Of a stretch of 64,000 bases of DNA, positions 32,301 to 60,976 are shown piece after piece. The stretch is from Rhynochetos jubatus (Eukaryota > Chordata > Aves > Eurypygiformes > Rhynochetidae). The stretch is taken from assembly GCA_027574665.1 (NCBI GenBank), contig CM050672.1, positions 11,454,001-11,518,000 on the forward strand, given 5' to 3'. The translations under genes and the position numbers were made by a program. Within the stretch, counting starts at the first letter, position 1. Each line of letters starts with the position of its first letter. The notes below the pieces were generated by a model. It had not been told where the DNA came from and searched no databases. It saw only the letters and a program-made list of their open reading frames with translations.

Positions 32301-32399
32301 AAGAGCAGGGGGTGGAGCAAGCCAGGCCTCAAACCACGAGAAGCTCCAGCCCAAAAGGCAGCCAAAATCCAGCCCACATCCGGGAGAATCTCAAGAGCA

Positions 32400-33060
32400 G
32401 GGGGTGGAGCAAGCCAGGCCTCAAACCACGAGAAGCTCCAGCCCAAAAGGCAGCCAAATGCAGCCCACATCCGGGAGAATCTCAAGAGCAGGGGGTGGAG
32501 CAAGCCAGGCCTCAAACCACGAGAAGCTCCAGCCCAAGTATCAGCCAAAATGCAGCCCACATCTAGGAGAATCTCAAGAGCAGGGGGTGGAGCAAGCCAG
32601 GCCTCAAACCACGAGAAGCTCCAGCCCAAAAGGCAGCCAAATGCAGCCCACATCCGGGAGAATCTCAAGAGCAGGGGGTGGAGCAAGCCAGGCCTCAAAC
32701 CACGAGAAGCTCCAGCCCAAAATGCAGCGAAAATCCAGCCCACATCCGGGAGAATCTCAAGAGCAGGGGGTGGAGCAAGCCAGGCCTCAAACCACGAGAA
32801 GCTCCAGCCCAAAAGGCAGCCAAATGCAGCCCACATCCGGGAGAATCTCAAGAGCAGGGGGTGGAGCAAGCCAGGCCTCAAACCACGAGAAGCTCCAGCC
32901 CAAGTATCAGCCAAAATGCAGCCCACATCTAGGAGAATCTCAAGAGCAGGGGGTGGAGCAAGCCAGGCCTCAAACCACGAGAAGCTCCAGCCCAAAAGGC
33001 AGCCAAATGCAGCCCACATCCGGGAGAATCTCAAGAGCAGGGGGTGGAGCAAGCCAGGCC
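32400..33060 (+). repeat. 183-bp dimeric array with a 366-bp tetramer (pattern a-b-a-c-a-b-a)
   Basis: A 91-bp monomer (a, GGCAGCCAAATGCAG) alternates with 92-bp monomers; its marker ends at 32460, 32643, 32826 and 33009, exactly 183 bp apart. The partners are b (AAGTATCAGCC with CATCTAGGAG, 32535 and 32901) and c (TGCAGCGAAAATCC, 32718). The a-b-a-c order reappears inside each 42-monomer unit downstream, so this dimer block looks like a relative or donor of part of that unit. Confidence 0.85.
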
Positions 33061-34239
33061 TCAAACCACGAGAAGCTCCAGCCCAAAAGACAGCCAAAAT
33101 GCAGGACACATCCGGGAGAATCTCAAGAGTAGGGGGTCGAGCAAGCCAGGCCTCAAACCACGAGAAGCTCCAGCCCAAAAAGCAGCCAAAATGCAGCCCA
33201 CATCCAAAAGAATATGAAGAGGAGGGGGTGGAGCACGCCAGGCCTCAAACCACGAGAATCTCCAGCCCAAAATGCAGCCAAAATCCAGCCCACATCCGGG
33301 AGAATCTCAAGAGCAGGGGGTGGAGAAAGCCAGGCCTCAAACCACGAGAAGCTCCAGCCCTAAAGGCAGCCAAAATGCAGCCCACATCCGGGAGAATCTC
33401 AAGAGCAGGGGGTGGAGAAAGCCAGGCCTCAAACCACGAGAAGCTCCAGCCCTAAAGGCAGCCAAAATGCAGCCCACATCCGGGAGAATCTCAAGAGCAG
33501 GGGGTGGAGCAAGCCAGGCCTCAAACCACGAGAAGCTCCAGCCCAAAAGGCAGCCAAAATGCACGCCACATGCGGGAGAATTTCAAGAGCAGGGGGTGGA
33601 GCAAGGCAGGCCTCAAACCACGAGAAGCTCCAGCCCAAATGGCAGCCAAAATCCAGCCCACATCCAGGAGAATTTCAAGAGCAGGGGGTGGAGCAAGCCA
33701 GGCCTCAAACCATGAGAAGCTCCAGCCCAAGATTCACCCAGAATGCAGCCCACATCCGGGAGAATCTCAAGAGCAGGGGGTGGAGCAAGGCAGGCCTCAA
33801 ACCACGAGAAGCTCCAGCCCAAAATGTAGCCAAAATCCAGCCCACATCCAGGAGAATATCAAGAGCAGGGGGTGGAGCAAGCCAGGCCTCAAACCACGAG
33901 AAGCTCAAGCCCAAGTATCAGCCAAAATGCAGCCCACATCCGGGAGAATATCAAGAGCAGGGGGTGGTGCAAGCCAGGCCTCAAACCACGAGAAGCTCCA
34001 GCCCAAAATGCAGCCAAAATGCAGCCCACATCCGGGAGAATATCAAGAGCAGGGGGTGGAGCAAGCCAGGCCTCAAACCTCGAGAAGCTCCAGCCCAAAA
34101 GGCAGCCAAAATCCAGCCCACATCCGGGAGAATCTCAAGAGCAGGGGGTGGAGCAAGCCAGGCCTCAAACCACGAGAAGCTCCAGCCCAAAAGGCAGCCA
34201 AAATGCAGGTCACCTCCGGGAGAATCTCAAGAGCAGGGG

Positions 34240-35420
34240 GTGGAGCAAGCCAGGCCTCAAACCTCGAGAAGCTCCAGCCCAAAAGGCAGCCAAAATGCAG
34301 CCCACATCCGGGAGAATCTCAAGAGCAGGGGGTGGAGCAAGCCAGGCCTCAAACCTCGAGAAGCTCCAGCACAAAATGTAGCCAAAATGCAGCCCACATC
34401 CGGGAGAATCTCAAGAGCAGGGGGTGGAGTAAGCCAGGCCTCAAACCACGAGAAGCTCCAGCCCAAAAGGCAGCCAAAATGCAGCCCACATCCGGGACAA
34501 TTTCAAGAGCAGGGGGTGATGCAAGCCAGGCCCCAAACCACGAGAATCTCCAGCCCAAGTATCAGAAAAAATGCAGCCCACATCCGGGAGAATATCAAGA
34601 GCAGGGGGTGGAGCAAGCCAGGCCTCAAACCATGAGAAGCTCCAGCCCAAAATGCAGCCAAAATGCAGCCCACATCCGGGAGAATCTCAAGAGCAGGGGG
34701 TGGAGCAAGCCAGGCCTCAAACCACGAGAAGCTCCAGCCCAAAAGGCAGCCAAAATGCAGCCCACATCCAGGAGAATCTCAAGAGCAGTGGGTGGAGCAA
34801 GCCAGGCCTCAAACCATGAGAAGCTCCAGCCCAAAAGGCAGCCAAAATGCAGCCCACATCCGGGAGAATCTCAAGAGCAGGGGGTGGAGCAAGCCAGGCC
34901 TCAAACCACGAGAAGCTCCAGCCCAAAAGGCAGCCAAAATGCAGCCCACATCCGGGAGAATCTCAAGAGCAGGGGTTGGAGAAAGCCAGGCCTCAAACCA
35001 CGAGAAGCTCCAGCCCAAAAGGCAGCCAAAATGCAGGTCACCTCCGGGAGAATCTCAAGAGCAGGGGGTGGAGCAAGCCAGGCCTCAAACCTCGAGAAGC
35101 TCCAGCCCAAAAGGCAGCCAAAATGCAGCCCACATCCGGGAGAATCTCAAGAGCAGGGGGTGGAGCAAGCCAGGCCTCAAACCTCGAGAAGCTCCAGCAC
35201 AAAATGTAGCCAAAATGCAGCCCACATCCGGGAGAATCTCAAGAGCAGGGGGTGGAGTAAGCCAGGCCTCAAACCACGAGAAGCTCCAGCCCAAAAGGCA
35301 GCCAAAATGCAGCCCACATCCGGGACAATTTCAAGAGCAGGGGGTGATGCAAGCCAGGCCCCAAACCACGAGAATCTCCAGCCCAAGTATCAGAAAAAAT
35401 GCAGCCCACATCCGGGAGAA
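34240..35420 (+). repeat. Nine-monomer (828-bp) duplication
   Basis: The stretch from about 34200 to 34590 recurs at about 35030-35420 at an offset of exactly 828 bp. Shared marks are TGCAGGTCACCTCC, CACAAAATGTAGCC, GGAGTAAGCC, GGGACAATTTC, GGTGATGCAAGCC and AAGTATCAGAAAAAATG. The downstream copy contributes the left edge of the 8,274-bp unit. Confidence 0.8.
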
Positions 35421-35808
35421 TATCAAGAGCAGGGGGTGGAGCAAGCCAGGCCTCAAACCACGAGAAGCTCCAGCCCAAAAGGCAGCCAAAATGCAGCCCA
35501 CATCCGGGAGAATATCAAGAGTAGGGGGTGGAGCAAGCCAGGCCTCAAACCACGAGAAGCTCCAGCCCAAAAGGCAGCCAAAATGCAGCCCACATCCGGG
35601 AGAATCTCAAGAGCAGTGGGTGGAGCAATCCAGGCCTCAAACCATGAGAAGCTCCAGCCCAAAAGGCAGCCAAAATGCAGGCCACATCCGGGAGAATCTC
35701 AAGAGCAGGGGGTGGAGCAAGCCAGGCCTCAAACCACGAGAAGCTCCAGCCCAAGAATCACCCAGAATGCAGCCCACATCCGGGAGAATCTCAAGAGCAG
35801 GGGGTGGA

Positions 35809-38800
35809 ACAAGCCAGGCCTCAAACCACGAGAATCTCCAGCCCAAAAGGCAGCCAAAATCCAGCCCACATCCAGGAGTATTTCAAGAGCAGGGGATGGA
35901 GCAAGCCAGGCCTCAAACCACGAGAAGCTCCAGCCCAAGTATCAGCCAAAATGCAGCCCACATCCAGGAGCATATGAAGAGCAGGGTGTGGAGCAAGCCA
36001 GGCCTCAAACCACGAGAAGCTCCAGCCCAAAATGCAGCCAAAATCCAGCCCACATCGGGGAGAATCTCAAGAGCAGGGGGTGGAGCAAGCCAGGTCTCAA
36101 ACCACGAGAAGCTCCAGCCCAAAAGGCAGCCAAAATCCAGCCCACATCCGGGAGAATCTCAAGAGCAGGGGGTGGAGCAAGCCAGGCCTCAAACCACGAG
36201 AAGCTCCAGGCCAAAAGGCAGCCAAATGCAGCCCACATACGGGAGAATCTCAAGAACAGGGGGTGGAGCAAGCCAGGCCTCAAACCACGAGAAGCTCCAG
36301 CCCAAGTATCAGCCAAAATGCAGCCCACATACAGGAGAATCTCAAGAGCAGGGGGTGGAGCAAGCCAGGCCTCAAACCACGAGAAGCTCCAGGCCAAAAG
36401 GCAGCCAAATGCAGCCCACATCCGGGAGAATCTCAAGAGCAGGGGGTGGAGCAAGCCAGGCCTCAAACCACGAGAAGCTCCAGCCCAAAATGCAGCGAAA
36501 ATGCAGCCCACATCCGGGAGAATCTCAAGAGCAGGGGGTGGAGAAGCCAGGCCTCAAACCACGAGAAGTTCCAGCCCAAAAGTCATCCAAATTGCAGCCC
36601 ACATCCGGGAGAATCTGAAGAGCAGGGGGTGGAGCAAGCCAGGCCTCAAACCATGAGAAGCTCCAGCCCAAAAGGCAGCCAAAATGCAGCCCACATCCAA
36701 AAGAATATGAAGAGCTAGGGGTGGAGCACGACAGGCCTCAAGCCACGAGAAGCTCCAGCCCAAAATGCAGCCAAAATCTAGCCCACATCCGGGAGAATCT
36801 CAAGAGCAGGGGGTGGAGCAAGCCAGGCCTCAAACCACGAGCAGCTCCAGCCCAAAAGGCAGCCAAAATGCAGCGCACATCCGGGAGAATCTCAAGAGCA
36901 GGGGGTGGAGCAAGCCAGGCCTCAAACCACGAGAAGCTCCAGCCCAAAAGGCAGCCAAAATGCAGCCCACATCCAGGACAATTTCAAGAGCAGGGGGTGG
37001 AGCAAGCCAGGCCTCAAACCACGAGAAGCTCCAGCCCAAAAGGCAGCCAAAATGCAGCCCACATCCAGGACAATTTCAAGAGCAGGGGGTGGAGCAAGCC
37101 AGGCCTCAAACCACGAGAAGCTCCAGCCCAAAAGGCAGCCAAAATGCAGCCCACATCCGGGAGAATCTCAAGAGCAGGGGGTGGAGCAAGCCAGGCCTCA
37201 AACCACGAGAAGCTCCAGCCCAAAAGGCAGCCAAAATCCAGCCCACATCCGGGAGAATCTCAAGAGCAGGGGGTGGAGCAAGCCAGGCCTCAAACCACGA
37301 GAAGCTCCAGCCCTAAAGGCAGCCAAAATCCAGCCCACATCCGGGAGAATATCAAGAGTAGGGGGTGGAGCAAGCCAGGCCTCAAACCATGAGAAGCTCC
37401 AGCCCAAAAGGCAGCCAAAATGCAGGCCACATCCGGGAGAATCTCAAGAGCAGGGGGTGGAGCAAACCAGGCTTCAAACCACGAGAAGCTCCAGCCCAAA
37501 ATGCAGCCAAAATCCAGCCCACATCCGGGAGATTCTCAAGAGCAGGGGGTGGAGCAAGCCAGGCCTCAAACCTCGAGAAGCTCCAGCCCAAAATTCAGCC
37601 AAAATCCAGCCCACCTCCGGGAGAATCTCAAGAGCAGGGGGTGGAGCAAGCCAGGCCTCAAACCACGAGAAGCTCCAGCCCAAAAGGCAGCCAAAATCCA
37701 GCCCACATCCGGGAGAATCTCAAGAGCAGGGGGTGGAGCAAGCCAGGACTCAAACCACGAGAAGCTCCAGCCCAAAAGGCAGCCAAAATCCAGCCCACAT
37801 CCGGGAGAATCTCAAGAGCAGGGGGTGGAGCAAGCCAGGCCCCAAACCACGAGAATCTCCAGCCCAAGTGTCAGTCAAAATGCAGCCCACATCCGGGAGA
37901 ATCTCAAGAGCAGGGGGTGGAGCAAGGCAGGCCTCAAACCACGAGAAGCTCCAGCCCAAAAGGCAGCCAAAATCCAGCCCACATCCGGGAGAATCTCAAG
38001 AGCAGGGGGTGCAGCAAGCCAGGCCTCAAACCACGAGAAGCTCCAGCCCAAGTATCAGCCAAAATGCAGCCCACATCCAGGAGCATATGAAGAGCAGGGT
38101 GTGGAGCAAGGCAGGCCTCAAACCACGAGAAGCTCAAGCCCAAGTATCAGCCAAAATCCAGCCCACATCCGGGAGATTCTCAAGAGCAGGGGGTGGAGCA
38201 AGCCAGGCCTCAAACCTCGAGAAGCTCCAGTCCAAAATGCAGCCAAAATCCAGCCCACATCCGGGAGATTCTCAAGAGCAGGGGGTGGAGCAAGCCAGGC
38301 CTCAAACCTCGAGAAGCTCCAGCCCAAAAGGCAGCCAAAATCCAGCCCACATCCGGGAGAATCTCAAGAGCAGGGGGTGGAGCAAGCCAGGCCTCAAACC
38401 ACGAGAAGCTCCAGCCCAAAAGGCAGCCAAAATGCAGCCCAGATCCAGGAGAATATCAAGAGCAGGGGGTGGAGCAAGCCAGGCCTCAAACCACGAGAAG
38501 TTCCAGCCCTAAAGGCAGCCAAAATGCAGCCCACATCCGGGACAATCTCAAGAGCAGGGGGTGGAGCAAGCCAGGCCTCAAACCACGAGAAGCTCCAGCC
38601 CAAGAATCACCCAGAATGCAGCCCACATCCAGGAGAATCTCAAGAGCAGGGGGTGGAGCAAGCCAGGCTTCAAACCTCGAGAAGCTCCAGCCCAAAAGGC
38701 AGCCAAAATCCAGCCCACATCCGGGAGATTCTCAAGAGTAGGAGGTGGAGCAAGCCAGGCCTCAAACCTCGAGAAGCTCCAGCCCAAAAGGCAGCCAAAA

Positions 38801-39669
38801 TGCAGCCCAAATCCGGGAGATTCTCAAGAGCAGGAGGTGGAGCAAGCCAGGCCTCAAACCTCGAGAAGCTCCAGCCCAAAATGCAGCCAAAATCTAGCCC
38901 ACATCCGGGAGAATCTCAAGAGCAGGGGGTGGAGCAAGCCAGGCCTCAAACCTCGAGAAGCTCCAGCCCAAAATTCAGCCAAAATCCAGCCCACCTCCGG
39001 GAGAATCTCAAGAGCAGGGGGTGGAGCAAGCCAGGCCTCAAACCACGAGAAGCTCCAGCCCAAAAGGCAGCCAAAATCCAGCCCACATCCGGGAGAATCT
39101 CAAGAGCAGGGGGTGGAGCAAGCCAGGACTCAAACCACGAGAAGCTCCAGCCCAAAAGGCAGCCAAAATCCAGCCCACATCCGGGAGAATCTCAAGAGCA
39201 GGGGGTGGAGCAAGCCAGGCCCCAAACCACGAGAATCTCCAGCCCAAGTATCAGTCAAAATGCAGCCCACATCCGGGAGAATCTCAAGAGCAGGGGGTGG
39301 AGCAAGCCAGGCCTCAAACCACGAGAAGCTCCAGCCCAAAAGGCAGCCAAAATCCAGCCCACATCCGGGAGAATCTCAAGAGCAGGGGGTGCAGCAAGCC
39401 AGGCCTCAAACCACGAGAAGCTCCAGCCCAAGTATCAGCCAAAATGCAGCCCACATCCAGGAGCATATGAAGAGCAGGGTGTGGAGCAAGCCAGGCCTCA
39501 AACCACGAGAAGCTCAAGCCCAAGTATCAGCCAAAATCCAGCCCACATCCGGGAGATTCTCAAGAGCAGGGGGTGGAGCAAGCCAGGCCTCAAACCTCGA
39601 GAAGCTCCAGTCCAAAATGCAGCCAAAATCCAGCCCACATCCGGGAGAATCTCAAGAGCAGGGGGTGGA
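35809..39669 (+). repeat. 42-monomer subunit U1 (3,861 bp)
   Basis: Delimited by the unique GGTGGAACAAGCC marker, which stands at 35809, 39670, 44083 and 47944. Length is 42 x 92 - 3. Order inside: CATATG monomer, a-b-a-c tetramer (36200-36500), AAAAGTCATCCAAATTGC, GAGCTAGGGG, CCAGGACAATTTC twice, then the two eight-monomer segments 1,380 bp apart. U1 has C at 38831 where U2-U4 have T. Confidence 0.93.
37535..39650 (+). repeat. Internal duplication of eight monomers at 1,380 bp (15 monomers) within the 42-mer
   Basis: 37535-38270 matches 38915-39650. Markers are AAAATTCAGCC, CAGGACTC, AAGTGTCAGTC or AAGTATCAGTC, GGGTGCAGC (38010 and 39390), CATATG, and GTCCAAAATGC. A few differences (GTGTC/GTATC, GCAAGGCAGG/GCAAGCCAGG) show it is older than the 42-mer amplification. 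It is carried in U2 (41871/43251), U3 (46284/47664) and U4 (50145/51525). Confidence 0.9.
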
Positions 39670-42600
39670 ACAAGCCAGGCCTCAAACCACGAGAATCTCC
39701 AGCCCAAAAGGCAGCCAAAATCCAGCCCACATCCAGGAGTATTTCAAGAGCAGGGGATGGAGCAAGCCAGGCCTCAAACCACGAGAAGCTCCAGCCCAAG
39801 TATCAGCCAAAATGCAGCCCACATCCAGGAGCATATGAAGAGCAGGGTGTGGAGCAAGCCAGGCCTCAAACCACGAGAAGCTCCAGCCCAAAATGCAGCC
39901 AAAATCCAGCCCACATCGGGGAGAATCTCAAGAGCAGGGGGTGGAGCAAGCCAGGTCTCAAACCACGAGAAGCTCCAGCCCAAAAGGCAGCCAAAATCCA
40001 GCCCACATCCGGGAGAATCTCAAGAGCAGGGGGTGGAGCAAGCCAGGCCTCAAACCACGAGAAGCTCCAGGCCAAAAGGCAGCCAAATGCAGCCCACATA
40101 CGGGAGAATCTCAAGAACAGGGGGTGGAGCAAGCCAGGCCTCAAACCACGAGAAGCTCCAGCCCAAGTATCAGCCAAAATGCAGCCCACATACAGGAGAA
40201 TCTCAAGAGCAGGGGGTGGAGCAAGCCAGGCCTCAAACCACGAGAAGCTCCAGGCCAAAAGGCAGCCAAATGCAGCCCACATCCGGGAGAATCTCAAGAG
40301 CAGGGGGTGGAGCAAGCCAGGCCTCAAACCACGAGAAGCTCCAGCCCAAAATGCAGCGAAAATGCAGCCCACATCCGGGAGAATCTCAAGAGCAGGGGGT
40401 GGAGAAGCCAGGCCTCAAACCACGAGAAGTTCCAGCCCAAAAGTCATCCAAATTGCAGCCCACATCCGGGAGAATCTGAAGAGCAGGGGGTGGAGCAAGC
40501 CAGGCCTCAAACCATGAGAAGCTCCAGCCCAAAAGGCAGCCAAAATGCAGCCCACATCCAAAAGAATATGAAGAGCTAGGGGTGGAGCACGACAGGCCTC
40601 AAGCCACGAGAAGCTCCAGCCCAAAATGCAGCCAAAATCTAGCCCACATCCGGGAGAATCTCAAGAGCAGGGGGTGGAGCAAGCCAGGCCTCAAACCACG
40701 AGCAGCTCCAGCCCAAAAGGCAGCCAAAATGCAGCGCACATCCGGGAGAATCTCAAGAGCAGGGGGTGGAGCAAGCCAGGCCTCAAACCACGAGAAGCTC
40801 CAGCCCAAAAGGCAGCCAAAATGCAGCCCACATCCAGGACAATTTCAAGAGCAGGGGGTGGAGCAAGCCAGGCCTCAAACCACGAGAAGCTCCAGCCCAA
40901 AAGGCAGCCAAAATGCAGCCCACATCCAGGACAATTTCAAGAGCAGGGGGTGGAGCAAGCCAGGCCTCAAACCACGAGAAGCTCCAGCCCAAAAGGCAGC
41001 CAAAATGCAGCCCACATCCGGGAGAATCTCAAGAGCAGGGGGTGGAGCAAGCCAGGCCTCAAACCACGAGAAGCTCCAGCCCAAAAGGCAGCCAAAATCC
41101 AGCCCACATCCGGGAGAATCTCAAGAGCAGGGGGTGGAGCAAGCCAGGCCTCAAACCACGAGAAGCTCCAGCCCTAAAGGCAGCCAAAATCCAGCCCACA
41201 TCCGGGAGAATATCAAGAGTAGGGGGTGGAGCAAGCCAGGCCTCAAACCATGAGAAGCTCCAGCCCAAAAGGCAGCCAAAATGCAGGCCACATCCGGGAG
41301 AATCTCAAGAGCAGGGGGTGGAGCAAACCAGGCTTCAAACCACGAGAAGCTCCAGCCCAAAATGCAGCCAAAATCCAGCCCACATCCGGGAGATTCTCAA
41401 GAGCAGGGGGTGGAGCAAGCCAGGCCTCAAACCTCGAGAAGCTCCAGCCCAAAATTCAGCCAAAATCCAGCCCACCTCCGGGAGAATCTCAAGAGCAGGG
41501 GGTGGAGCAAGCCAGGCCTCAAACCACGAGAAGCTCCAGCCCAAAAGGCAGCCAAAATCCAGCCCACATCCGGGAGAATCTCAAGAGCAGGGGGTGGAGC
41601 AAGCCAGGACTCAAACCACGAGAAGCTCCAGCCCAAAAGGCAGCCAAAATCCAGCCCACATCCGGGAGAATCTCAAGAGCAGGGGGTGGAGCAAGCCAGG
41701 CCCCAAACCACGAGAATCTCCAGCCCAAGTGTCAGTCAAAATGCAGCCCACATCCGGGAGAATCTCAAGAGCAGGGGGTGGAGCAAGGCAGGCCTCAAAC
41801 CACGAGAAGCTCCAGCCCAAAAGGCAGCCAAAATCCAGCCCACATCCGGGAGAATCTCAAGAGCAGGGGGTGCAGCAAGCCAGGCCTCAAACCACGAGAA
41901 GCTCCAGCCCAAGTATCAGCCAAAATGCAGCCCACATCCAGGAGCATATGAAGAGCAGGGTGTGGAGCAAGGCAGGCCTCAAACCACGAGAAGCTCAAGC
42001 CCAAGTATCAGCCAAAATCCAGCCCACATCCGGGAGATTCTCAAGAGCAGGGGGTGGAGCAAGCCAGGCCTCAAACCTCGAGAAGCTCCAGTCCAAAATG
42101 CAGCCAAAATCCAGCCCACATCCGGGAGATTCTCAAGAGCAGGGGGTGGAGCAAGCCAGGCCTCAAACCTCGAGAAGCTCCAGCCCAAAAGGCAGCCAAA
42201 ATCCAGCCCACATCCGGGAGAATCTCAAGAGCAGGGGGTGGAGCAAGCCAGGCCTCAAACCACGAGAAGCTCCAGCCCAAAAGGCAGCCAAAATGCAGCC
42301 CAGATCCAGGAGAATATCAAGAGCAGGGGGTGGAGCAAGCCAGGCCTCAAACCACGAGAAGTTCCAGCCCTAAAGGCAGCCAAAATGCAGCCCACATCCG
42401 GGACAATCTCAAGAGCAGGGGGTGGAGCAAGCCAGGCCTCAAACCACGAGAAGCTCCAGCCCAAGAATCACCCAGAATGCAGCCCACATCCAGGAGAATC
42501 TCAAGAGCAGGGGGTGGAGCAAGCCAGGCTTCAAACCTCGAGAAGCTCCAGCCCAAAAGGCAGCCAAAATCCAGCCCACATCCGGGAGATTCTCAAGAGT

Positions 42601-44082
42601 AGGAGGTGGAGCAAGCCAGGCCTCAAACCTCGAGAAGCTCCAGCCCAAAAGGCAGCCAAAATGCAGCCCAAATCCGGGAGATTCTCAAGAGTAGGAGGTG
42701 GAGCAAGCCAGGCCTCAAACCTCGAGAAGCTCCAGCCCAAAATGCAGCCAAAATCTAGCCCACATCCGGGAGAATCTCAAGAGCAGGGGGTGGAGCAAGC
42801 CAGGCCTCAAACCTCGAGAAGCTCCAGCCCAAAATTCAGCCAAAATCCAGCCCACCTCCGGGAGAATCTCAAGAGCAGGGGGTGGAGCAAGCCAGGACTC
42901 AAACCACGAGAAGCTCCAGCCCAAAAGGCAGCCAAAATCCAGCCCACATCCGGGAGAATCTCAAGAGCAGGGGGTGGAGCAAGCCAGGACTCAAACCACG
43001 AGAAGCTCCAGCCCAAAAGGCAGCCAAAATCCAGCCCACATCCGGGAGAATCTCAAGAGCAGGGGGTGGAGCAAGCCAGGCCCCAAACCACGAGAATCTC
43101 CAGCCCAAGTATCAGTCAAAATGCAGCCCACATCCGGGAGAATCTCAAGAGCAGGGGGTGGAGCAAGCCAGGCCTCAAACCACGAGAAGCTCCAGCCCAA
43201 AAGGCAGCCAAAATCCAGCCCACATCCGGGAGAATCTCAAGAGCAGGGGGTGCAGCAAGCCAGGCCTCAAACCACGAGAAGCTCCAGCCCAAGTATCAGC
43301 CAAAATGCAGCCCACATCCAGGAGCATATGAAGAGCAGGGTGTGGAGCAAGCCAGGCCTCAAACCACGAGAAGCTCAAGCCCAAGTATCAGCCAAAATCC
43401 AGCCCACATCCGGGAGATTCTCAAGAGCAGGGGGTGGAGCAAGCCAGGCCTCAAACCTCGAGAAGCTCCAGTCCAAAATGCAGCCAAAATCCAGCCCACA
43501 TCCGGGAGATTCTCAAGAGCAGGGGGTGGAGCAAGCCAGGCCTCAAACCTCGAGAAGCTCCAGCCCAAAAGGCAGCCAAAATGCAGCCCACATCCGGGAC
43601 AATTTCAAGAGCAGGGGGTGATGCAAGCCAGGCCCCAAACCACGAGAATCTCCAGCCCAAGTATCAGAAAAAATGCAGCCCACATCCGGGAGAATATCAA
43701 GAGCAGGGGGTGGAGCAAGCCAGGCCTCAAACCACGAGAAGCTCCAGCCCAAAAGGCAGCCAAAATGCAGCCCACATCCGGGAGAATATCAAGAGTAGGG
43801 GGTGGAGCAAGCCAGGCCTCAAACCACGAGAAGCTCCAGCCCAAAAGGCAGCCAAAATGCAGCCCACATCCGGGAGAATCTCAAGAGCAGTGGGTGGAGC
43901 AATCCAGGCCTCAAACCATGAGAAGCTCCAGCCCAAAAGGCAGCCAAAATGCAGGCCACATCCGGGAGAATCTCAAGAGCAGGGGGTGGAGCAAGCCAGG
44001 CCTCAAACCACGAGAAGCTCCAGCCCAAGAATCACCCAGAATGCAGCCCACATCCGGGAGAATCTCAAGAGCAGGGGGTGGA
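39670..44082 (+). repeat. 42+6-monomer subunit U2 (4,413 bp)
   Basis: Same as U1 for 42 monomers, followed by six extra monomers (about 43574-44082) that are the lead monomers of the next 8,274-bp unit. A private substitution is A at 42897 (CAGGACTC), where U1 has C at 39036. Confidence 0.93.
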
Positions 44083-47000
44083 ACAAGCCAGGCCTCAAAC
44101 CACGAGAATCTCCAGCCCAAAAGGCAGCCAAAATCCAGCCCACATCCAGGAGTATTTCAAGAGCAGGGGATGGAGCAAGCCAGGCCTCAAACCACGAGAA
44201 GCTCCAGCCCAAGTATCAGCCAAAATGCAGCCCACATCCAGGAGCATATGAAGAGCAGGGTGTGGAGCAAGCCAGGCCTCAAACCACGAGAAGCTCCAGC
44301 CCAAAATGCAGCCAAAATCCAGCCCACATCGGGGAGAATCTCAAGAGCAGGGGGTGGAGCAAGCCAGGTCTCAAACCACGAGAAGCTCCAGCCCAAAAGG
44401 CAGCCAAAATCCAGCCCACATCCGGGAGAATCTCAAGAGCAGGGGGTGGAGCAAGCCAGGCCTCAAACCACGAGAAGCTCCAGGCCAAAAGGCAGCCAAA
44501 TGCAGCCCACATACGGGAGAATCTCAAGAACAGGGGGTGGAGCAAGCCAGGCCTCAAACCACGAGAAGCTCCAGCCCAAGTATCAGCCAAAATGCAGCCC
44601 ACATACAGGAGAATCTCAAGAGCAGGGGGTGGAGCAAGCCAGGCCTCAAACCACGAGAAGCTCCAGGCCAAAAGGCAGCCAAATGCAGCCCACATCCGGG
44701 AGAATCTCAAGAGCAGGGGGTGGAGCAAGCCAGGCCTCAAACCACGAGAAGCTCCAGCCCAAAATGCAGCCAAAATGCAGCCCACATCCGGGAGAATCTC
44801 AAGAGCAGGGGGTGGAGAAGCCAGGCCTCAAACCACGAGAAGTTCCAGCCCAAAAGTCATCCAAATTGCAGCCCACATCCGGGAGAATCTGAAGAGCAGG
44901 GGGTGGAGCAAGCCAGGCCTCAAACCATGAGAAGCTCCAGCCCAAAAGGCAGCCAAAATGCAGCCCACATCCAAAAGAATATGAAGAGCTAGGGGTGGAG
45001 CACGACAGGCCTCAAGCCACGAGAAGCTCCAGCCCAAAATGCAGCCAAAATCTAGCCCACATCCGGGAGAATCTCAAGAGCAGGGGGTGGAGCAAGCCAG
45101 GCCTCAAACCACGAGCAGCTCCAGCCCAAAAGGCAGCCAAAATGCAGCGCACATCCGGGAGAATCTCAAGAGCAGGGGGTGGAGCAAGCCAGGCCTCAAA
45201 CCACGAGAAGCTCCAGCCCAAAAGGCAGCCAAAATGCAGCCCACATCCAGGACAATTTCAAGAGCAGGGGGTGGAGCAAGCCAGGCCTCAAACCACGAGA
45301 AGCTCCAGCCCAAAAGGCAGCCAAAATGCAGCCCACATCCAGGACAATTTCAAGAGCAGGGGGTGGAGCAAGCCAGGCCTCAAACCACGAGAAGCTCCAG
45401 CCCAAAAGGCAGCCAAAATGCAGCCCACATCCGGGAGAATCTCAAGAGCAGGGGGTGGAGCAAGCCAGGCCTCAAACCACGAGAAGCTCCAGCCCAAAAG
45501 GCAGCCAAAATCCAGCCCACATCCGGGAGAATCTCAAGAGCAGGGGGTGGAGCAAGCCAGGCCTCAAACCACGAGAAGCTCCAGCCCTAAAGGCAGCCAA
45601 AATCCAGCCCACATCCGGGAGAATATCAAGAGTAGGGGGTGGAGCAAGCCAGGCCTCAAACCATGAGAAGCTCCAGCCCAAAAGGCAGCCAAAATGCAGG
45701 CCACATCCGGGAGAATCTCAAGAGCAGGGGGTGGAGCAAACCAGGCTTCAAACCACGAGAAGCTCCAGCCCAAAATGCAGCCAAAATCCAGCCCACATCC
45801 GGGAGATTCTCAAGAGCAGGGGGTGGAGCAAGCCAGGCCTCAAACCTCGAGAAGCTCCAGCCCAAAATTCAGCCAAAATCCAGCCCACCTCCGGGAGAAT
45901 CTCAAGAGCAGGGGGTGGAGCAAGCCAGGCCTCAAACCACGAGAAGCTCCAGCCCAAAAGGCAGCCAAAATCCAGCCCACATCCGGGAGAATCTCAAGAG
46001 CAGGGGGTGGAGCAAGCCAGGACTCAAACCACGAGAAGCTCCAGCCCAAAAGGCAGCCAAAATCCAGCCCACATCCGGGAGAATCTCAAGAGCAGGGGGT
46101 GGAGCAAGCCAGGCCCCAAACCACGAGAATCTCCAGCCCAAGTGTCAGTCAAAATGCAGCCCACATCCGGGAGAATCTCAAGAGCAGGGGGTGGAGCAAG
46201 GCAGGCCTCAAACCACGAGAAGCTCCAGCCCAAAAGGCAGCCAAAATCCAGCCCACATCCGGGAGAATCTCAAGAGCAGGGGGTGCAGCAAGCCAGGCCT
46301 CAAACCACGAGAAGCTCCAGCCCAAGTATCAGCCAAAATGCAGCCCACATCCAGGAGCATATGAAGAGCAGGGTGTGGAGCAAGGCAGGCCTCAAACCAC
46401 GAGAAGCTCAAGCCCAAGTATCAGCCAAAATCCAGCCCACATCCGGGAGATTCTCAAGAGCAGGGGGTGGAGCAAGCCAGGCCTCAAACCTCGAGAAGCT
46501 CCAGTCCAAAATGCAGCCAAAATCCAGCCCACATCCGGGAGATTCTCAAGAGCAGGGGGTGGAGCAAGCCAGGCCTCAAACCTCGAGAAGCTCCAGCCCA
46601 AAAGGCAGCCAAAATCCAGCCCACATCCGGGAGAATCTCAAGAGCAGGGGGTGGAGCAAGCCAGGCCTCAAACCACGAGAAGCTCCAGCCCAAAAGGCAG
46701 CCAAAATGCAGCCCAGATCCAGGAGAATATCAAGAGCAGGGGGTGGAGCAAGCCAGGCCTCAAACCACGAGAAGTTCCAGCCCTAAAGGCAGCCAAAATG
46801 CAGCCCACATCCGGGACAATCTCAAGAGCAGGGGGTGGAGCAAGCCAGGCCTCAAACCACGAGAAGCTCCAGCCCAAGAATCACCCAGAATGCAGCCCAC
46901 ATCCAGGAGAATCTCAAGAGCAGGGGGTGGAGCAAGCCAGGCTTCAAACCTCGAGAAGCTCCAGCCCAAAAGGCAGCCAAAATCCAGCCCACATCCGGGA

Positions 47001-50000
47001 GATTCTCAAGAGTAGGAGGTGGAGCAAGCCAGGCCTCAAACCTCGAGAAGCTCCAGCCCAAAAGGCAGCCAAAATGCAGCCCAAATCCGGGAGATTCTCA
47101 AGAGTAGGAGGTGGAGCAAGCCAGGCCTCAAACCTCGAGAAGCTCCAGCCCAAAATGCAGCCAAAATCTAGCCCACATCCGGGAGAATCTCAAGAGCAGG
47201 GGGTGGAGCAAGCCAGGCCTCAAACCTCGAGAAGCTCCAGCCCAAAATTCAGCCAAAATCCAGCCCACCTCCGGGAGAATCTCAAGAGCAGGGGGTGGAG
47301 CAAGCCAGGCCTCAAACCACGAGAAGCTCCAGCCCAAAAGGCAGCCAAAATCCAGCCCACATCCGGGAGAATCTCAAGAGCAGGGGGTGGAGCAAGCCAG
47401 GACTCAAACCACGAGAAGCTCCAGCCCAAAAGGCAGCCAAAATCCAGCCCACATCCGGGAGAATCTCAAGAGCAGGGGGTGGAGCAAGCCAGGCCCCAAA
47501 CCACGAGAATCTCCAGCCCAAGTATCAGTCAAAATGCAGCCCACATCCGGGAGAATCTCAAGAGCAGGGGGTGGAGCAAGCCAGGCCTCAAACCACGAGA
47601 AGCTCCAGCCCAAAAGGCAGCCAAAATCCAGCCCACATCCGGGAGAATCTCAAGAGCAGGGGGTGCAGCAAGCCAGGCCTCAAACCACGAGAAGCTCCAG
47701 CCCAAGTATCAGCCAAAATGCAGCCCACATCCAGGAGCATATGAAGAGCAGGGTGTGGAGCAAGCCAGGCCTCAAACCACGAGAAGCTCAAGCCCAAGTA
47801 TCAGCCAAAATCCAGCCCACATCCGGGAGATTCTCAAGAGCAGGGGGTGGAGCAAGCCAGGCCTCAAACCTCGAGAAGCTCCAGTCCAAAATGCAGCCAA
47901 AATCCAGCCCACATCCGGGAGAATCTCAAGAGCAGGGGGTGGAACAAGCCAGGCCTCAAACCACGAGAATCTCCAGCCCAAAAGGCAGCCAAAATCCAGC
48001 CCACATCCAGGAGTATTTCAAGAGCAGGGGATGGAGCAAGCCAGGCCTCAAACCACGAGAAGCTCCAGCCCAAGTATCAGCCAAAATGCAGCCCACATCC
48101 AGGAGCATATGAAGAGCAGGGTGTGGAGCAAGCCAGGCCTCAAACCACGAGAAGCTCCAGCCCAAAATGCAGCCAAAATCCAGCCCACATCGGGGAGAAT
48201 CTCAAGAGCAGGGGGTGGAGCAAGCCAGGTCTCAAACCACGAGAAGCTCCAGCCCAAAAGGCAGCCAAAATCCAGCCCACATCCGGGAGAATCTCAAGAG
48301 CAGGGGGTGGAGCAAGCCAGGCCTCAAACCACGAGAAGCTCCAGGCCAAAAGGCAGCCAAATGCAGCCCACATACGGGAGAATCTCAAGAACAGGGGGTG
48401 GAGCAAGCCAGGCCTCAAACCACGAGAAGCTCCAGCCCAAGTATCAGCCAAAATGCAGCCCACATACAGGAGAATCTCAAGAGCAGGGGGTGGAGCAAGC
48501 CAGGCCTCAAACCACGAGAAGCTCCAGGCCAAAAGGCAGCCAAATGCAGCCCACATCCGGGAGAATCTCAAGAGCAGGGGGTGGAGCAAGCCAGGCCTCA
48601 AACCACGAGAAGCTCCAGCCCAAAATGCAGCGAAAATGCAGCCCACATCCGGGAGAATCTCAAGAGCAGGGGGTGGAGAAGCCAGGCCTCAAACCACGAG
48701 AAGTTCCAGCCCAAAAGTCATCCAAATTGCAGCCCACATCCGGGAGAATCTGAAGAGCAGGGGGTGGAGCAAGCCAGGCCTCAAACCATGAGAAGCTCCA
48801 GCCCAAAAGGCAGCCAAAATGCAGCCCACATCCAAAAGAATATGAAGAGCTAGGGGTGGAGCACGACAGGCCTCAAGCCACGAGAAGCTCCAGCCCAAAA
48901 TGCAGCCAAAATCTAGCCCACATCCGGGAGAATCTCAAGAGCAGGGGGTGGAGCAAGCCAGGCCTCAAACCACGAGCAGCTCCAGCCCAAAAGGCAGCCA
49001 AAATGCAGCGCACATCCGGGAGAATCTCAAGAGCAGGGGGTGGAGCAAGCCAGGCCTCAAACCACGAGAAGCTCCAGCCCAAAAGGCAGCCAAAATGCAG
49101 CCCACATCCAGGACAATTTCAAGAGCAGGGGGTGGAGCAAGCCAGGCCTCAAACCACGAGAAGCTCCAGCCCAAAAGGCAGCCAAAATGCAGCCCACATC
49201 CAGGACAATTTCAAGAGCAGGGGGTGGAGCAAGCCAGGCCTCAAACCACGAGAAGCTCCAGCCCAAAAGGCAGCCAAAATGCAGCCCACATCCGGGAGAA
49301 TCTCAAGAGCAGGGGGTGGAGCAAGCCAGGCCTCAAACCACGAGAAGCTCCAGCCCAAAAGGCAGCCAAAATCCAGCCCACATCCGGGAGAATCTCAAGA
49401 GCAGGGGGTGGAGCAAGCCAGGCCTCAAACCACGAGAAGCTCCAGCCCTAAAGGCAGCCAAAATCCAGCCCACATCCGGGAGAATATCAAGAGTAGGGGG
49501 TGGAGCAAGCCAGGCCTCAAACCATGAGAAGCTCCAGCCCAAAAGGCAGCCAAAATGCAGGCCACATCCGGGAGAATCTCAAGAGCAGGGGGTGGAGCAA
49601 ACCAGGCTTCAAACCACGAGAAGCTCCAGCCCAAAATGCAGCCAAAATCCAGCCCACATCCGGGAGATTCTCAAGAGCAGGGGGTGGAGCAAGCCAGGCC
49701 TCAAACCTCGAGAAGCTCCAGCCCAAAATTCAGCCAAAATCCAGCCCACCTCCGGGAGAATCTCAAGAGCAGGGGGTGGAGCAAGCCAGGCCTCAAACCA
49801 CGAGAAGCTCCAGCCCAAAAGGCAGCCAAAATCCAGCCCACATCCGGGAGAATCTCAAGAGCAGGGGGTGGAGCAAGCCAGGACTCAAACCACGAGAAGC
49901 TCCAGCCCAAAAGGCAGCCAAAATCCAGCCCACATCCGGGAGAATCTCAAGAGCAGGGGGTGGAGCAAGCCAGGCCCCAAACCACGAGAATCTCCAGCCC

Positions 50001-51847
50001 AAGTGTCAGTCAAAATGCAGCCCACATCCGGGAGAATCTCAAGAGCAGGGGGTGGAGCAAGGCAGGCCTCAAACCACGAGAAGCTCCAGCCCAAAAGGCA
50101 GCCAAAATCCAGCCCACATCCGGGAGAATCTCAAGAGCAGGGGGTGCAGCAAGCCAGGCCTCAAACCACGAGAAGCTCCAGCCCAAGTATCAGCCAAAAT
50201 GCAGCCCACATCCAGGAGCATATGAAGAGCAGGGTGTGGAGCAAGGCAGGCCTCAAACCACGAGAAGCTCAAGCCCAAGTATCAGCCAAAATCCAGCCCA
50301 CATCCGGGAGATTCTCAAGAGCAGGGGGTGGAGCAAGCCAGGCCTCAAACCTCGAGAAGCTCCAGTCCAAAATGCAGCCAAAATCCAGCCCACATCCGGG
50401 AGATTCTCAAGAGCAGGGGGTGGAGCAAGCCAGGCCTCAAACCTCGAGAAGCTCCAGCCCAAAAGGCAGCCAAAATCCAGCCCACATCCGGGAGAATCTC
50501 AAGAGCAGGGGGTGGAGCAAGCCAGGCCTCAAACCACGAGAAGCTCCAGCCCAAAAGGCAGCCAAAATGCAGCCCAGATCCAGGAGAATATCAAGAGCAG
50601 GGGGTGGAGCAAGCCAGGCCTCAAACCACGAGAAGTTCCAGCCCTAAAGGCAGCCAAAATGCAGCCCACATCCGGGACAATCTCAAGAGCAGGGGGTGGA
50701 GCAAGCCAGGCCTCAAACCACGAGAAGCTCCAGCCCAAGAATCACCCAGAATGCAGCCCACATCCAGGAGAATCTCAAGAGCAGGGGGTGGAGCAAGCCA
50801 GGCTTCAAACCTCGAGAAGCTCCAGCCCAAAAGGCAGCCAAAATCCAGCCCACATCCGGGAGATTCTCAAGAGTAGGAGGTGGAGCAAGCCAGGCCTCAA
50901 ACCTCGAGAAGCTCCAGCCCAAAAGGCAGCCAAAATGCAGCCCAAATCCGGGAGATTCTCAAGAGTAGGAGGTGGAGCAAGCCAGGCCTCAAACCTCGAG
51001 AAGCTCCAGCCCAAAATGCAGCCAAAATCTAGCCCACATCCGGGAGAATCTCAAGAGCAGGGGGTGGAGCAAGCCAGGCCTCAAACCTCGAGAAGCTCCA
51101 GCCCAAAATTCAGCCAAAATCCAGCCCACCTCCGGGAGAATCTCAAGAGCAGGGGGTGGAGCAAGCCAGGCCTCAAACCACGAGAAGCTCCAGCCCAAAA
51201 GGCAGCCAAAATCCAGCCCACATCCGGGAGAATCTCAAGAGCAGGGGGTGGAGCAAGCCAGGACTCAAACCACGAGAAGCTCCAGCCCAAAAGGCAGCCA
51301 AAATCCAGCCCACATCCGGGAGAATCTCAAGAGCAGGGGGTGGAGCAAGCCAGGCCCCAAACCACGAGAATCTCCAGCCCAAGTATCAGTCAAAATGCAG
51401 CCCACATCCGGGAGAATCTCAAGAGCAGGGGGTGGAGCAAGCCAGGCCTCAAACCACGAGAAGCTCCAGCCCAAAAGGCAGCCAAAATCCAGCCCACATC
51501 CGGGAGAATCTCAAGAGCAGGGGGTGCAGCAAGCCAGGCCTCAAACCACGAGAAGCTCCAGCCCAAGTATCAGCCAAAATGCAGCCCACATCCAGGAGCA
51601 TATGAAGAGCAGGGTGTGGAGCAAGCCAGGCCTCAAACCACGAGAAGCTCAAGCCCAAGTATCAGCCAAAATCCAGCCCACATCCGGGAGATTCTCAAGA
51701 GCAGGGGGTGGAGCAAGCCAGGCCTCAAACCTCGAGAAGCTCCAGTCCAAAATGCAGCCAAAATCCAGCCCACATCCGGGAGATTCTCAAGAGCAGGGGG
51801 TGGAGCAAGCCAGGCCTCAAACCTCGAGAAGCTCCAGCCCAAAAGGC
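43574..51847 (+). repeat. 8,274-bp (90-monomer) higher-order unit, copy 2
   Basis: Near-identical tandem copy of 35300-43573. The right edge is at about 51850: this copy reads AAAATCCAG where the first copy, entering copy 2, reads AAAATGCAG. Beyond the edge, 51790-52050 instead continues as the sequence 1,380 bp upstream (50410-50670), so the end has been extended by the internal 15-monomer step. Confidence 0.92.
44083..47943 (+). repeat. 42-monomer subunit U3 (3,861 bp)
   Basis: Same length and order as U1. A private substitution is C at 44771 (TGCAGCCAAAATG), where U1, U2 and U4 have G (36497 in U1). Confidence 0.93.
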
Positions 51848-52050
51848 AGCCAAAATCCAGCCCACATCCGGGAGAATCTCAAGAGCAGGGGGTGGAGCAA
51901 GCCAGGCCTCAAACCACGAGAAGCTCCAGCCCAAAAGGCAGCCAAAATGCAGCCCAGATCCAGGAGAATATCAAGAGCAGGGGGTGGAGCAAGCCAGGCC
52001 TCAAACCACGAGAAGTTCCAGCCCTAAAGGCAGCCAAAATGCAGCCCACA
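47944..52050 (+). repeat. 42-monomer subunit U4 with right-end extension
   Basis: Matches U1-U3 from the GGAACAAG marker at 47944 through about 51790. It then follows the internal 1,380-bp period for about 260 bp instead of starting a new subunit, ending where GGGACAATCTC (near 50670) is replaced by AGGACAATTTC (near 52050). Past this point the array returns to mixed, more diverged monomers. Confidence 0.88.
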
Positions 52051-55000
52051 TCCAGGACAATTTCAAGAGCAGGGGGTGGAGCAAGCCAGGCCTCAAACCA
52101 CGAGAAGCTCCAGCCCAAAATGCAGCCAAAATCTAGCCCACATCCGGGAGAATCTCAAGAGCATTGGGTGGAGCAAGCCAGGCCTCAAACCACGAGAAGC
52201 TCCAGCCCAAAAGGCAGCCAAAATCCAGCCCACCTCCTGGAGAATCTCAAGAGCAGGGGGTGGAGCAAGCCAGGCCTCAAACCACGAGAAGCTCCAGCCC
52301 AAAAGGCAGCCAAAATTCAGCCCACATCCGGGAGAATCTCAAGAGCAGGGGGTGGAGCAAGCCAGGCCTCAAACCACGAGAAGCTCCAGCCCAAAAGGCA
52401 GCCAAAATCCAGCCCACATCCGGGAGAATCTCAAGAGCAGGGGGTGGAGCAAGCCAGGCCTCAAACCACGAGAAGCTCCAGCCAAAAAGGCAGCCAAAAT
52501 CCAGCCCACATCCGGGAGAATATCAAGAGTAGGGGGTGGAGCAAGCCAGGCCTCAAACCATGAGAAGCTCCAGCCCAAAAGGCAGCCAAAATGCAGGCCA
52601 CATCCGGGAGAATCTCAAGAGCAGGGGGTGGAGCAAACCAGGCTTCAAACCACGAGAAGCTCCAGCCCAAAATGCAGCCAAAATCCAGCCCACATCCGGG
52701 AGATTCTCAAGAGCAGGGGGTGGAGCAAGCCAGGCCTCAAACCACGAGAAGCTCCAGCCCAAAATTCAGCCAAAATCCAGCCCACATCCGGGAGAATCTC
52801 AAGAGCAGGGGGTGGAGCAAGCCAGGCCTCAAACCACGAGAAGCTCCAGCCCAAAATGTAGCCAAAATGCAGCCCACATCCAGGAGAATCTCAAGAGCAG
52901 GGGGTGGAGCAAGCCAGGCCTCAAACCACGAGAAGCTCCAGCCCAAAATGTAGCCAAGATGCAGCCCACATCCGGGACAATTTCAAGAGCAGGGGGTGGA
53001 GCAAGCCAGGCCCCAAACCACGAGAATCTCCAGCCCAAGTATCAGCCAAAATGCAGCCCACATTTAGGAGAATATCAAGAGCAGGGGGTGGAGCAAGCCA
53101 GGCCTCAAACCTCGAGAAGCTCCAGCCCAAAATGCAGCCAAAATCCAGCCCACCTCCGGGAGAATCTCAAGAGCAGTGGGTGGAGCAAGCCAGGCCTCAA
53201 ACCCCGAGAAGCTCCAGCCCAAAAGGCAGCCAAAATCCAGCCCACATCCGGGAGAATCTCAAGAGCAGTGGGTGGAGCAAGCCAGGACTCAAACCACGAG
53301 AAGCTCCAGCCCAAAAGGCAGCCAAAATCCAGCCCACATCCGGGAGAATCTCAAGAGCAGGGGGTGGAGCAAGCCAGGCCTCAAACCACGAGAAGCTCCA
53401 GCCCAAAAGGCAGCCAAAATGCAGCCCACATCCAAAAGAATATGAAGAGCAGGGGATGGAGCACGACAGGCCTCAAGCCACGAGAAGCTCCAGCCCAAAA
53501 TGCAGCCAAAATCTACCCCACATCCGGGAGAATCTCAAGAGCAGGGGGTGGAGCAAGCCAGGCCTCAAACCACGAGCAGCTCCAGCCCAAAAGGCAGCCA
53601 AAATGCAGCCCACATCCGGGAGAATCTCAAGAGCAGGGAGTGGAGCAAGCCAGGCCCCAAACCACGAGAATCTCCAGCCCAAGTATCAGTCAAAATGCAG
53701 CCCACATCCGGGAGAATCTCAAGAGCAGGGGGTGGAGCAAGCCAGGCCTCAAACCACGAGAAGCTCCAGCCCAAAAGGCAGCCAAAATCCAGCCCACATC
53801 CGGGAGAATCTCAAGAGCAGGGGGTGCAGCAAGCCAGGCCTCAAACCACGAGAAGCTCCAGCCCAAGTATCAGCCAAAATGCAGCCCACATCCAGGAGCA
53901 TATGAAGAGCAGGGTGTGGAGCAAGCCAGGCCTCAAACCACGAGAAGCTCCAGCCCAAAAGGCAGCCAAAATCCAGCCCAAATCCAGGAGAATTTCAAGA
54001 GTAGGGGGTGGAGCAAGCCAGGCCTCAAACCACGAGAAGCTCCAGCCCAAGTATCAGCCAAAATGCAGCCCACATCCAGGAGCATATGAAGAGCAGGGTG
54101 TGGAGCAAGGCAGGCCTCAAACCACGAGAAGCCCCAGCCCAAGTATCAGCCAAAATCCAGCCCACATCCGGGAGATTCTCAAGAGCAGGGGGTGGAGCAA
54201 GCCAGGCCTCAAACCTCGAGAAGCTCCAGTCCAAAATGCAGCCAAAATCCAGCCCACATCCGGGAGATTCTCAAGAGCAGGGGGTGGAGCAAGCCAGGCC
54301 TCAAACCACGAGAAGCTCCAGCCCAAAAGGCAGCCAAAATGCAGCCCACATCCGGGAGAATATCAAGAGCAGGGGGTGGAGGAAGCCAGGCCTCAAACCA
54401 CGAGAAGCTCCAGCCCAAAAGGCAGCCAAAATGCAGCCCACATCCGGGACAATTTCAAGAGCAGGGGGTGGAGCAAGCCAGGCCTCAAACCACGAGAAGC
54501 TCCAGCCCAAGAATCACCCAGAATGCAGCCCACATCCAGGAGAATCTCAAGAGCAGGGGGTGCAGCAAGCCAGGCTTCAAACCATGAGAAGCTCCAGCCC
54601 AAAAGGCAGCCAAAAAGCAGCCCACATCCGGGAGAATATCAAGAGCAGGGTATGGAGCAAGCCAGGCCTCAAACCTCGAGAAGCTCCAGCCCAAAATGCA
54701 GCCAAAATCCAGCCCACATCCGGGAGATTCTCAAGAGTAGGAGGTGGAGCAAGCCAGGCCTCAAACCTCGAGAAGCTCCAGCCCAAAATGCAGCCAAAAT
54801 GCAGCCCACATCCGGGAGAATCTCAAGAGCAGGGGGTGGAGCAAGCCAGCCCTCAAACCACGAGAAGCTGCAGCCCAAAAGGCAGCCAAAATGCAGGCCA
54901 CATCCGGGAGAATCTCAAGAGAAGGGGTCGAGCAAGCCAGGCCTCAAACCACGAGAAGCTCCAGCCCAAAAGGCAGCCAAAATCCAGCCCACATCCAAAA

Positions 55001-55600
55001 GAATATGAAGAGCAGGGGGTGGAGCACGACAGGCCTCAAACCACGAGAAGCTCCAGCCCAAAAGGCAGCCAAAATGCAGCCCACATCCGGGAGAATCTCA
55101 AGAGCAGGGGGTGGAGCAAGCCAGGCCTCAAACCTCGAGAAGCTCCAGCCCAAAATGCAGCCAAAATCCAGCGTACATCCGGGAGATTCTCAAGAGCAGG
55201 GGGTGGAGCAAGCCAGGCCACAAACCACGAGAAGCTCCAGCCCAAAAGGCAGCCAAAATGCAGCCCACATCCGGGAGAATCTCAAGAGCAGGGGGTGGAG
55301 CAAGCCAGGCCTCAAACCACGAGAAGCTCCAGCCCAAAAGGCAGCCAAAATCCAGCCCACATCCGGGAGAATATCAAGAGTAGGGGGTGGAGTAAGCCAG
55401 GCCACAAACCACGAGAAGCTCCAGCCCAAAAGGCAGCCAAAATGCAGCCCACATCCGGGAGAATCTCAAGAGCGGTGGGTGGAGCAAGCCAGGCCTTAAA
55501 CCACGAGAAGCTCCAGCCCAAAAGGCAGACAAAATGCAGCCCACATCCGGGAGAATCTCAAGAGCAGGGGGTGGAGCAAGCCAGGCCTCAAACCATGAGA
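52051..55600 (+). repeat. Mixed zone C monomers flanking the young core
   Basis: Ordinary satellite with mosaic similarity to the core: the GGGTGCAGC and CATATG monomers recur near 53826 and 53900, CCAAAAGAATATG near 53430 and 54990, and AGCAGCTCC near 53575. I could not define a clean tandem unit. A private one-base deletion lies near 54928 (AGAAGGGGTCG). Confidence 0.75.
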
Positions 55601-60900: not shown

Positions 60901-60976
60901 AGGGGGTGGAGCAAGCCAGGCCCCAAACCACGAGAATCTCCAGCCCAAGTATGAGCCAAAATGCAGCCCACATTCG

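What the first reader, a model, noticed from the sequence alone, without database searches (positions are those of the whole stretch)
35300..51847. Nested, very recently amplified higher-order repeat: 90-mer containing two 42-mers containing a 15-mer step
Four copies of a 42-monomer unit, paired into two 8,274-bp copies, span 16.5 kb. In them I noticed only three substitutions (38831 C against T; 42897 A private; 44771 C private), while neighbouring monomers commonly differ at several sites. Three levels of period (1,380; 3,861; 8,274 bp) are readable, and their order of formation can be inferred: the 15-mer step is oldest because its copies differ most, then the 42-mer, then the 90-mer. Near-identity marks this as the youngest, possibly still-evolving core of the array.
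Basis: seen in the sequence. Interest (0 to 1): 0.72.

Follow-up and report, generated by a model that had tools for sequence, protein, structure and literature searches.

The report
Young nested duplications in 92-bp satellite
A long stretch of simple repeated DNA has copied a 42-unit piece of itself and then copied the pair again, so recently that the copies are almost identical; this is real but is the ordinary way such repeat arrays grow.

Summary
The whole window is one head-to-tail array of a 92-bp, GC-rich, T-poor satellite. A tandem duplication of period 8,274 bp (90 monomers) spans 35277-51856: 3 mismatches in 8,306 bp, no indel. Each half holds a 3,861-bp (42-monomer) tandem duplication; all three substitutions are private to one of the four 42-mers. 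Shuffling monomer order gives identical runs of 2-3 monomers; 44 are observed. The interpretation needs three corrections. (1) The order 42-mer then 90-mer follows from nesting (both halves carry the same 42-mer junction), not from divergence: no substitution falls between the two events. (2) The '15-mer step' is older, but only 1,005 of 1,380 bp is well conserved. (3) The block is not demonstrably the youngest: 10820-13981 holds a 1,565-bp tandem duplication with 0 mismatches in 1,597 bp. Best explanation: successive in-register unequal exchange or break-induced replication, with breakpoints in 18-32 bp of perfect identity; incipient higher-order repeat formation, a known process. Species, chromosomal position and centromere function could not be determined. 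Interest is low.

The parts
1..64000 (+). 92-bp satellite array, head to tail, about 695.6 copies; monomer lengths 92 (630), 93 (37), 91 (28), plus one partial of 51
   Evidence: TRF; monomer walk
35277..43550 (+). first copy of the 8,274-bp (90-monomer) tandem unit
   Evidence: 3 mismatches in 8,306 bp to the second copy
43551..51824 (+). second copy of the 8,274-bp unit; homology runs on to 51856 (32-bp exact overlap at the junction)
35770..39630 (+). 42-monomer (3,861-bp) copy 1; private C at 38831
39631..43491 (+). 42-monomer copy 2; private A at 42897
44044..47904 (+). 42-monomer copy 3; private C at 44771
47905..51765 (+). 42-monomer copy 4; no private substitution
49669..50673 (+). left part of the older 15-monomer (offset 1,380) duplication in its most complete form
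   Evidence: 3 mismatches in 1,005 bp to 51049-52053
51049..52053 (+). right part of the offset-1,380 duplication, extending past the end of the 8,274-bp unit
10820..13981 (+). separate young tandem duplication, period 1,565 bp (17 monomers), 0 mismatches in 1,597 bp
18553..20938 (+). separate young duplication, offset 1,199 bp (13 monomers), 1 mismatch in 1,187 bp; the shared block is 12 bp shorter than the offset, so no junction tract could be read

Best explanation
A 92-bp satellite array, most likely heterochromatic and in a eukaryotic genome with methylated CpG (inferred). It grew locally by at least three successive duplications: an offset-1,380 (15-monomer) event, then a 3,861-bp (42-monomer) tandem event, then an 8,274-bp (90-monomer) tandem event that copied the 42-mer pair whole. 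Each of the two larger duplications joined two in-register places, whose flanks are about 86-94% identical to each other, within an 18- or 32-bp stretch of perfect identity. That is what out-of-register sister exchange or break-induced replication between misaligned monomers would leave. Shown: the nesting, the junctions, the identities and the private substitutions. Inferred: the molecular pathway, the host type and the absence of sequence-specific function. The result is an incipient higher-order repeat of two to four copies, not an established HOR array.
For: Nested blocks at 99.95-99.97% identity with the same 18-bp 42-mer junction in both halves. Breakpoint tracts of 32, 18 and (the 17-mer event) 32 bp fall within the random in-register distribution: median 23, 5-95% range 3-73, 5,000 points. 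Computationally removing one 8,274- and one 3,861-bp copy leaves the 1,380 relation intact. Other duplications of similar youth occur elsewhere in the window, so the process is array-wide. CpG transitions are 7.0-8.3% per site against 1.4-1.9% at non-CpG C and G, the pattern expected of a methylated genome. [quoted passage not shown]
Against: Unequal exchange cannot be separated from break-induced replication, rolling-circle reinsertion or conversion with this sequence alone. Zero substitutions between the 42-mer and 90-mer events would also suit one compound episode. The offset-1,380 and offset-1,199 relations are not clean tandem duplications now. No reads were available to confirm copy number. 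The host is unknown; the own-genome search did not complete.
Confidence: 0.85

Rival explanations
1. Assembly artefact: the assembler duplicated an 8.3-kb piece or placed two haplotypes in tandem.
For: Copies differ at only 3 of 8,306 sites, a level at which haplotypes can differ; arrays of this kind are hard to assemble.
Against: The 8,274-bp junction occurs once and rests on only 32 bp of identity, with flanks 92% and 86% identical. An overlap-based misjoin would normally need a much longer identical overlap, so at least one read probably carries the junction (inference). There is no N in the window and no indel between copies.
Confidence: 0.1
2. One replication-based episode (break-induced replication with repeated template switching, or rolling-circle reinsertion) made all four 42-mers together, rather than two separated exchanges. 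This is a narrower version of the best explanation, not exclusive of it.
For: No substitution separates the 42-mer step from the 90-mer step: 0 of 3,861 aligned columns. [quoted passage not shown]
Against: The same 18-bp 42-mer junction in both halves means the 42-mer duplication existed before or during the copying of the 90-mer. The limit on the interval is loose: 0 changes has a 95% upper bound of about 0.95 per kb.
Confidence: 0.3
3. The repeats are part of a very large coding region with a 92-residue repeat.
For: One + frame is open for 2,661 aa (16-8001). In 1-7728 the three + frames hold 0, 10 and 4 stops; 20 of 2,000 monomer shuffles of that stretch gave a stop-free frame. Over the whole window the longest stop-free stretch was reached by 1 of 300 shuffles on the + strand and 0 of 300 on the - strand.
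Against: Differences from consensus in 1-7728 fall evenly over codon positions (90, 90, 96) and synonymous changes are no commoner in the open frame (64) than in the other two (63, 59). 65 monomers are 91 or 93 bp. Whole-window stops are 67, 94 and 91 per + frame. The first 500 aa of that frame gave one Pfam family, SspN (25.3 bits, just over its cut-off of 25), but with 0 stretches passing on their own, which I read as a chance match summed over repeats.
Confidence: 0.01

Closest known systems
Alpha-satellite higher-order repeats and layered expansions in primate centromeres (PMC11062924 and PMC12321929: passages seen)
   Same: Multi-monomer units copied in tandem at near identity inside an array of diverged monomers; recent layers distinguished by sequence.
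   Different: The monomer is 92 bp, 57% GC and T-poor, not 171-bp alpha satellite. There are two to four copies in the window, not long arrays. No link to a centromere was shown here.
Cascading HORs of human chromosome 15 (PMC11050224: abstract and passages seen)
   Same: Subunits repeat inside the larger repeat unit, giving several nested periods.
   Different: There the 15mer HOR has 429 copies and defined monomer types; here the 90-mer occurs twice.
Soybean CentGm-1 / SB92 centromeric satellite, 90-92 bp (PMC11447526: abstract and passages seen; PMC4053949: passages seen)
   Same: Monomer length of about 92 bp with 91- and 93-bp variants.
   Different: Sequence relation was not tested, because no CentGm-1 sequence was at hand; my recollection, from no call, is that CentGm-1 is AT-richer. 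In the passages seen of PMC11447526, HORs are described for the unrelated 413-bp CentGm-4.

Membership tests
Satellite DNA (long head-to-tail array) | Long tandem array of one monomer in one orientation | tested here: met
   TRF: 1-64000, period 92, 695.6 copies, 92% matches
Higher-order repeat (HOR) | Multi-monomer unit repeated in tandem, copies far more alike than the monomers inside | tested here: met
   42-mer copies differ at 1 or 2 of 3,879 sites in the four pairs listed against 92.2% identity for adjacent equal-length monomers
Higher-order repeat (HOR) | Extended array with many copies of the unit | tested here: not met
   Within the window the 42-mer occurs 4 times (2+2) and the 90-mer twice; what lies outside is unknown
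Primate alpha satellite | About 171-bp monomer | tested here: not met
   Period 92
Satellite with a CENP-B box | NTTCGNNNNANNCGGGN (motif recalled, from no call) | tested here: not met
   No site with 8 or 9 of the 9 core bases on either strand; the best is 7 of 9, at 63 sites on + and 8 on -
Centromeric satellite | CENP-A / CENH3 occupancy or primary-constriction location | not testable with these tools
   No chromatin, FISH or chromosome context
Soybean CentGm-1 (SB92) | Sequence similarity to the CentGm-1 consensus | not tested
   No CentGm-1 sequence was in the passages read
Protein-coding repeat | Codon-position bias of substitutions in the open frame | tested here: not met
   90/90/96 over the three positions in 1-7728

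The most novel reading that the evidence does not exclude
An undescribed GC-rich, strongly strand-asymmetric 92-bp satellite caught in the first steps of making a higher-order repeat: three ordered duplications, two of them with base-resolved junctions, in which identity tracts of only 18-32 bp were enough for exchange between places about 90% identical.
Probability: 0.3. Interest if true: 0.35.

Novelty: new member of a known kind. Interest (0 to 1): 0.17.

Why it matters
It gives a clean, base-resolved example of how a monomeric satellite begins to form higher-order repeats, with junctions and an order of events readable from one sequence. It changes no accepted view: nested, local tandem duplication is the expected behaviour of satellite arrays.

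Tried and rejected
Identification of the host: exact-pattern scans of GTDB genome contigs (0 matches) and IMG/VR (0 matches), blastn of 35656-36300 against plasmids (no match), Rfam at gathering threshold on 35000-44000 (0 matches). A full-text paper search for six 14-15-base pieces of the monomer gave one paper, PMC11804790; only its search listing was seen, and from its title (on exercise and liver interferon) I take the match to be incidental. Searches on '92 bp' wording gave 203 papers (20 listed) and 5 papers (two of them on soybean, one on the human Y duplication cited in the evidence), and on 46 + 92 bp one barley paper, PMC11447152, listing only. In those listings, and in the passages I read of PMC11447526, PMC4053949 and PMC6790999, I saw nothing that identified this satellite. 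One paper search with six mechanism terms returned nothing; one search gave 127 papers (15 listed), of which PMC12321929 was read in passages.

Coding rejected: see the rivals. The longest stop-free stretches exceed nearly all monomer shuffles on both strands. I put this down to local similarity of neighbouring monomers, since the codon-position test on 1-7728 of the + strand is flat; the - strand was not tested further.

G-quadruplex motifs: 0 on each strand. 'Uniquely youngest block' rejected because of the duplications at 10820-13981 and 18553-20938.

Full report
What is there. Tandem Repeats Finder reads the whole window as a single array of a 92-bp unit, 695.6 copies, 92% matches, 0% indels after rounding. 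A monomer walk gave 696 pieces: 630 of 92 bp, 37 of 93, 28 of 91 and one partial of 51. Base composition is strand-asymmetric: A 21,726, C 18,990, G 17,333, T 5,951. The consensus matches itself at a shift of 46 better than shuffles of it do (46 of 92 positions; p 0.0012 in 5,000 shuffles), so the monomer may be an old dimer of a 46-bp unit.

The nested duplication. A scan of offsets from 92 to 63,499, screened for an exact run of at least 140 bases, listed 40 blocks. The longest is 35277-43582 against 43551-51856 (offset 8274, 3 mismatches in 8,306 bp, no indel). Four blocks of 3,879 bp relate the four 42-monomer copies, which begin at 35770, 39631, 44044 and 47905, with 1 or 2 mismatches each. 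8274 = 2 x 3861 + 552, so the 90-mer is 42 + 42 + 6 monomers. Only 3 of 3,861 columns vary among the four copies, each by one private base: 44771 C, 38831 C and 42897 A. By contrast adjacent equal-length monomers (578 of 694 neighbouring pairs) average 92.2% identity, and 38 of the 45 monomers in 35277-39500 are distinct. Shuffling monomer order 60 times gave identical runs of 2 (58 times) or 3 (twice) monomers against 44 observed.

Order of events. Both 8,274-bp halves carry the same 42-mer junction, so the 42-mer duplication precedes, or belongs to, the 90-mer one; that is shown by nesting. Divergence does not show it: no site separates copies 1 and 3 from copies 2 and 4. The 95% upper bound on this split is about 0.95 changes per kb, while the divergence of the 90-mer copies themselves is 0.36 per kb (0.07-1.06). 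The offset-1,380 relation is older by structure: its three differences are identical in all four 42-mers, and its most complete form, 49669-50673 against 51049-52053, continues to 52053, beyond the end of the 8,274-bp unit. By rate it is 3 in 1,005 bp (2.99 per kb; 0.62-8.72); this interval overlaps that of the 90-mer, and a direct comparison gives one-sided p 0.02. It is not a clean 15-monomer duplication now: a full 1,380-bp period has 29 or 31 mismatches.

Not uniquely young. At 10820-13981 a 1,565-bp (17-monomer) tandem duplication shows 0 mismatches in 1,597 bp. At 18553-20938 an offset-1,199 duplication shows 1 mismatch in 1,187 bp; its block is 12 bp shorter than the offset. Neither differs from the 90-mer rate (chance of 0 in 1,597 is 0.59; p 0.41 for 1 in 1,187). 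The finding's block is the longest recent duplication in the window, not demonstrably the youngest, and the array runs off both ends of the window, so 'core' is undefined.

How it probably works. The recombining sites can be placed for three events. The 8,274-bp event joined sequences sharing exactly 32 bp (flanking 92 bp 92.4% and 85.9% identical). The 3,861-bp event shared 18 bp (flanks 89.1% and 91.3-93.5%). The 1,565-bp event shared 32 bp (89.1% both sides). Exact tracts at 5,000 random in-register matching points have median 23 and a 5-95% range of 3-73. The breakpoints therefore look like random crossover points between aligned, imperfectly matching monomers, with no sign that long perfect identity was needed; three events are few. 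[quoted passage not shown] Unequal sister exchange and break-induced replication would both do this. PMC12321929 (abstract and passages) favours break-induced replication as the main route; PMC11062924 (passages) argues for mechanisms beyond simple unequal crossover in human arrays. I cannot separate the two here.

Setting. Transitions at the two CpGs of the consensus are 7.0% (C) and 8.3% (G) per copy against 1.4% and 1.9% at other C and G (the 630 monomers of 92 bp, the other 66 pieces dropped). This fits a genome with CpG methylation. No CENP-B-like box reaches 8 of 9 core bases. No Rfam match reached the gathering score in 35000-44000. The long open frames look like a by-product of few T's: in 1-7728 differences fall 90/90/96 over codon positions and synonymous changes are not enriched. 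Against that, one frame there has no stop where the other two have 10 and 4, which happened in some frame in 20 of 2,000 shuffles, and the longest stop-free stretches of both strands exceed nearly all shuffles.

Assembly artefact. No reads are available. The 8,274-bp junction occurs once and is defined by only 32 bp of identity, too short for a typical overlap misjoin (inference), so I rate an artefact at about 10%.

Known context. HORs are widespread: PMC4053949 (passages) reports clear cases in 76 of 171 species with Sanger data and GC-rich centromere repeats in some species. Nested periods have been named cascading HORs in human arrays (PMC11050224, abstract and passages).

Verdict. It is ordinary satellite evolution, a well-resolved example of incipient higher-order repeat formation. 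The host and any centromere role are undetermined. My searches did not find this satellite described, but the sequence collections searched are prokaryotic, viral and plasmid ones and the papers are open-licence only, so this does not show that it is new.

Noticed in passing
26614-63674: A monomer subtype with AAGTATC in place of AAAAGGC (four adjacent changes moving together, pairwise r 0.56-0.84) occurs in 54 monomers, none starting before 26614; 30 of the 54 are in 35277-51856. The window seems to cross from a subtype-free part to a subtype-bearing part.
   Followed up: partly
7729-29192 and 29193-64000: 93-bp monomers lie mostly left (34 of 37 start at or before 29192) and 91-bp monomers mostly right (22 of 28 start after it; 12 of these are in 35277-51856), another sign of two zones in the array.
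   Followed up: partly
10820-13981: Perfect 1,565-bp (17-monomer) tandem duplication, 0 mismatches in 1,597 bp, with a 32-bp junction tract.
   Followed up: yes
1-64000: Strong strand asymmetry: A 34%, T 9%; long stop-free frames appear on the + strand without codon-position signal where tested (1-7728).
   Followed up: partly
1-64000: At non-CpG A, C and G of the consensus, transversions outnumber transitions by copy count (for G 4.9% against 1.9%); at T it is the other way (0.5% against 0.8%). Counting distinct changes at non-CpG sites, 119 transversions and 62 transitions are seen, near the ratio of possible changes.
   Followed up: partly
57115-57703 and 60977-61565: Another pair at offset 3,862, close to the 42-mer period, but 589 bp long with 4 mismatches and outside the nested block; not examined further.
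   Followed up: no
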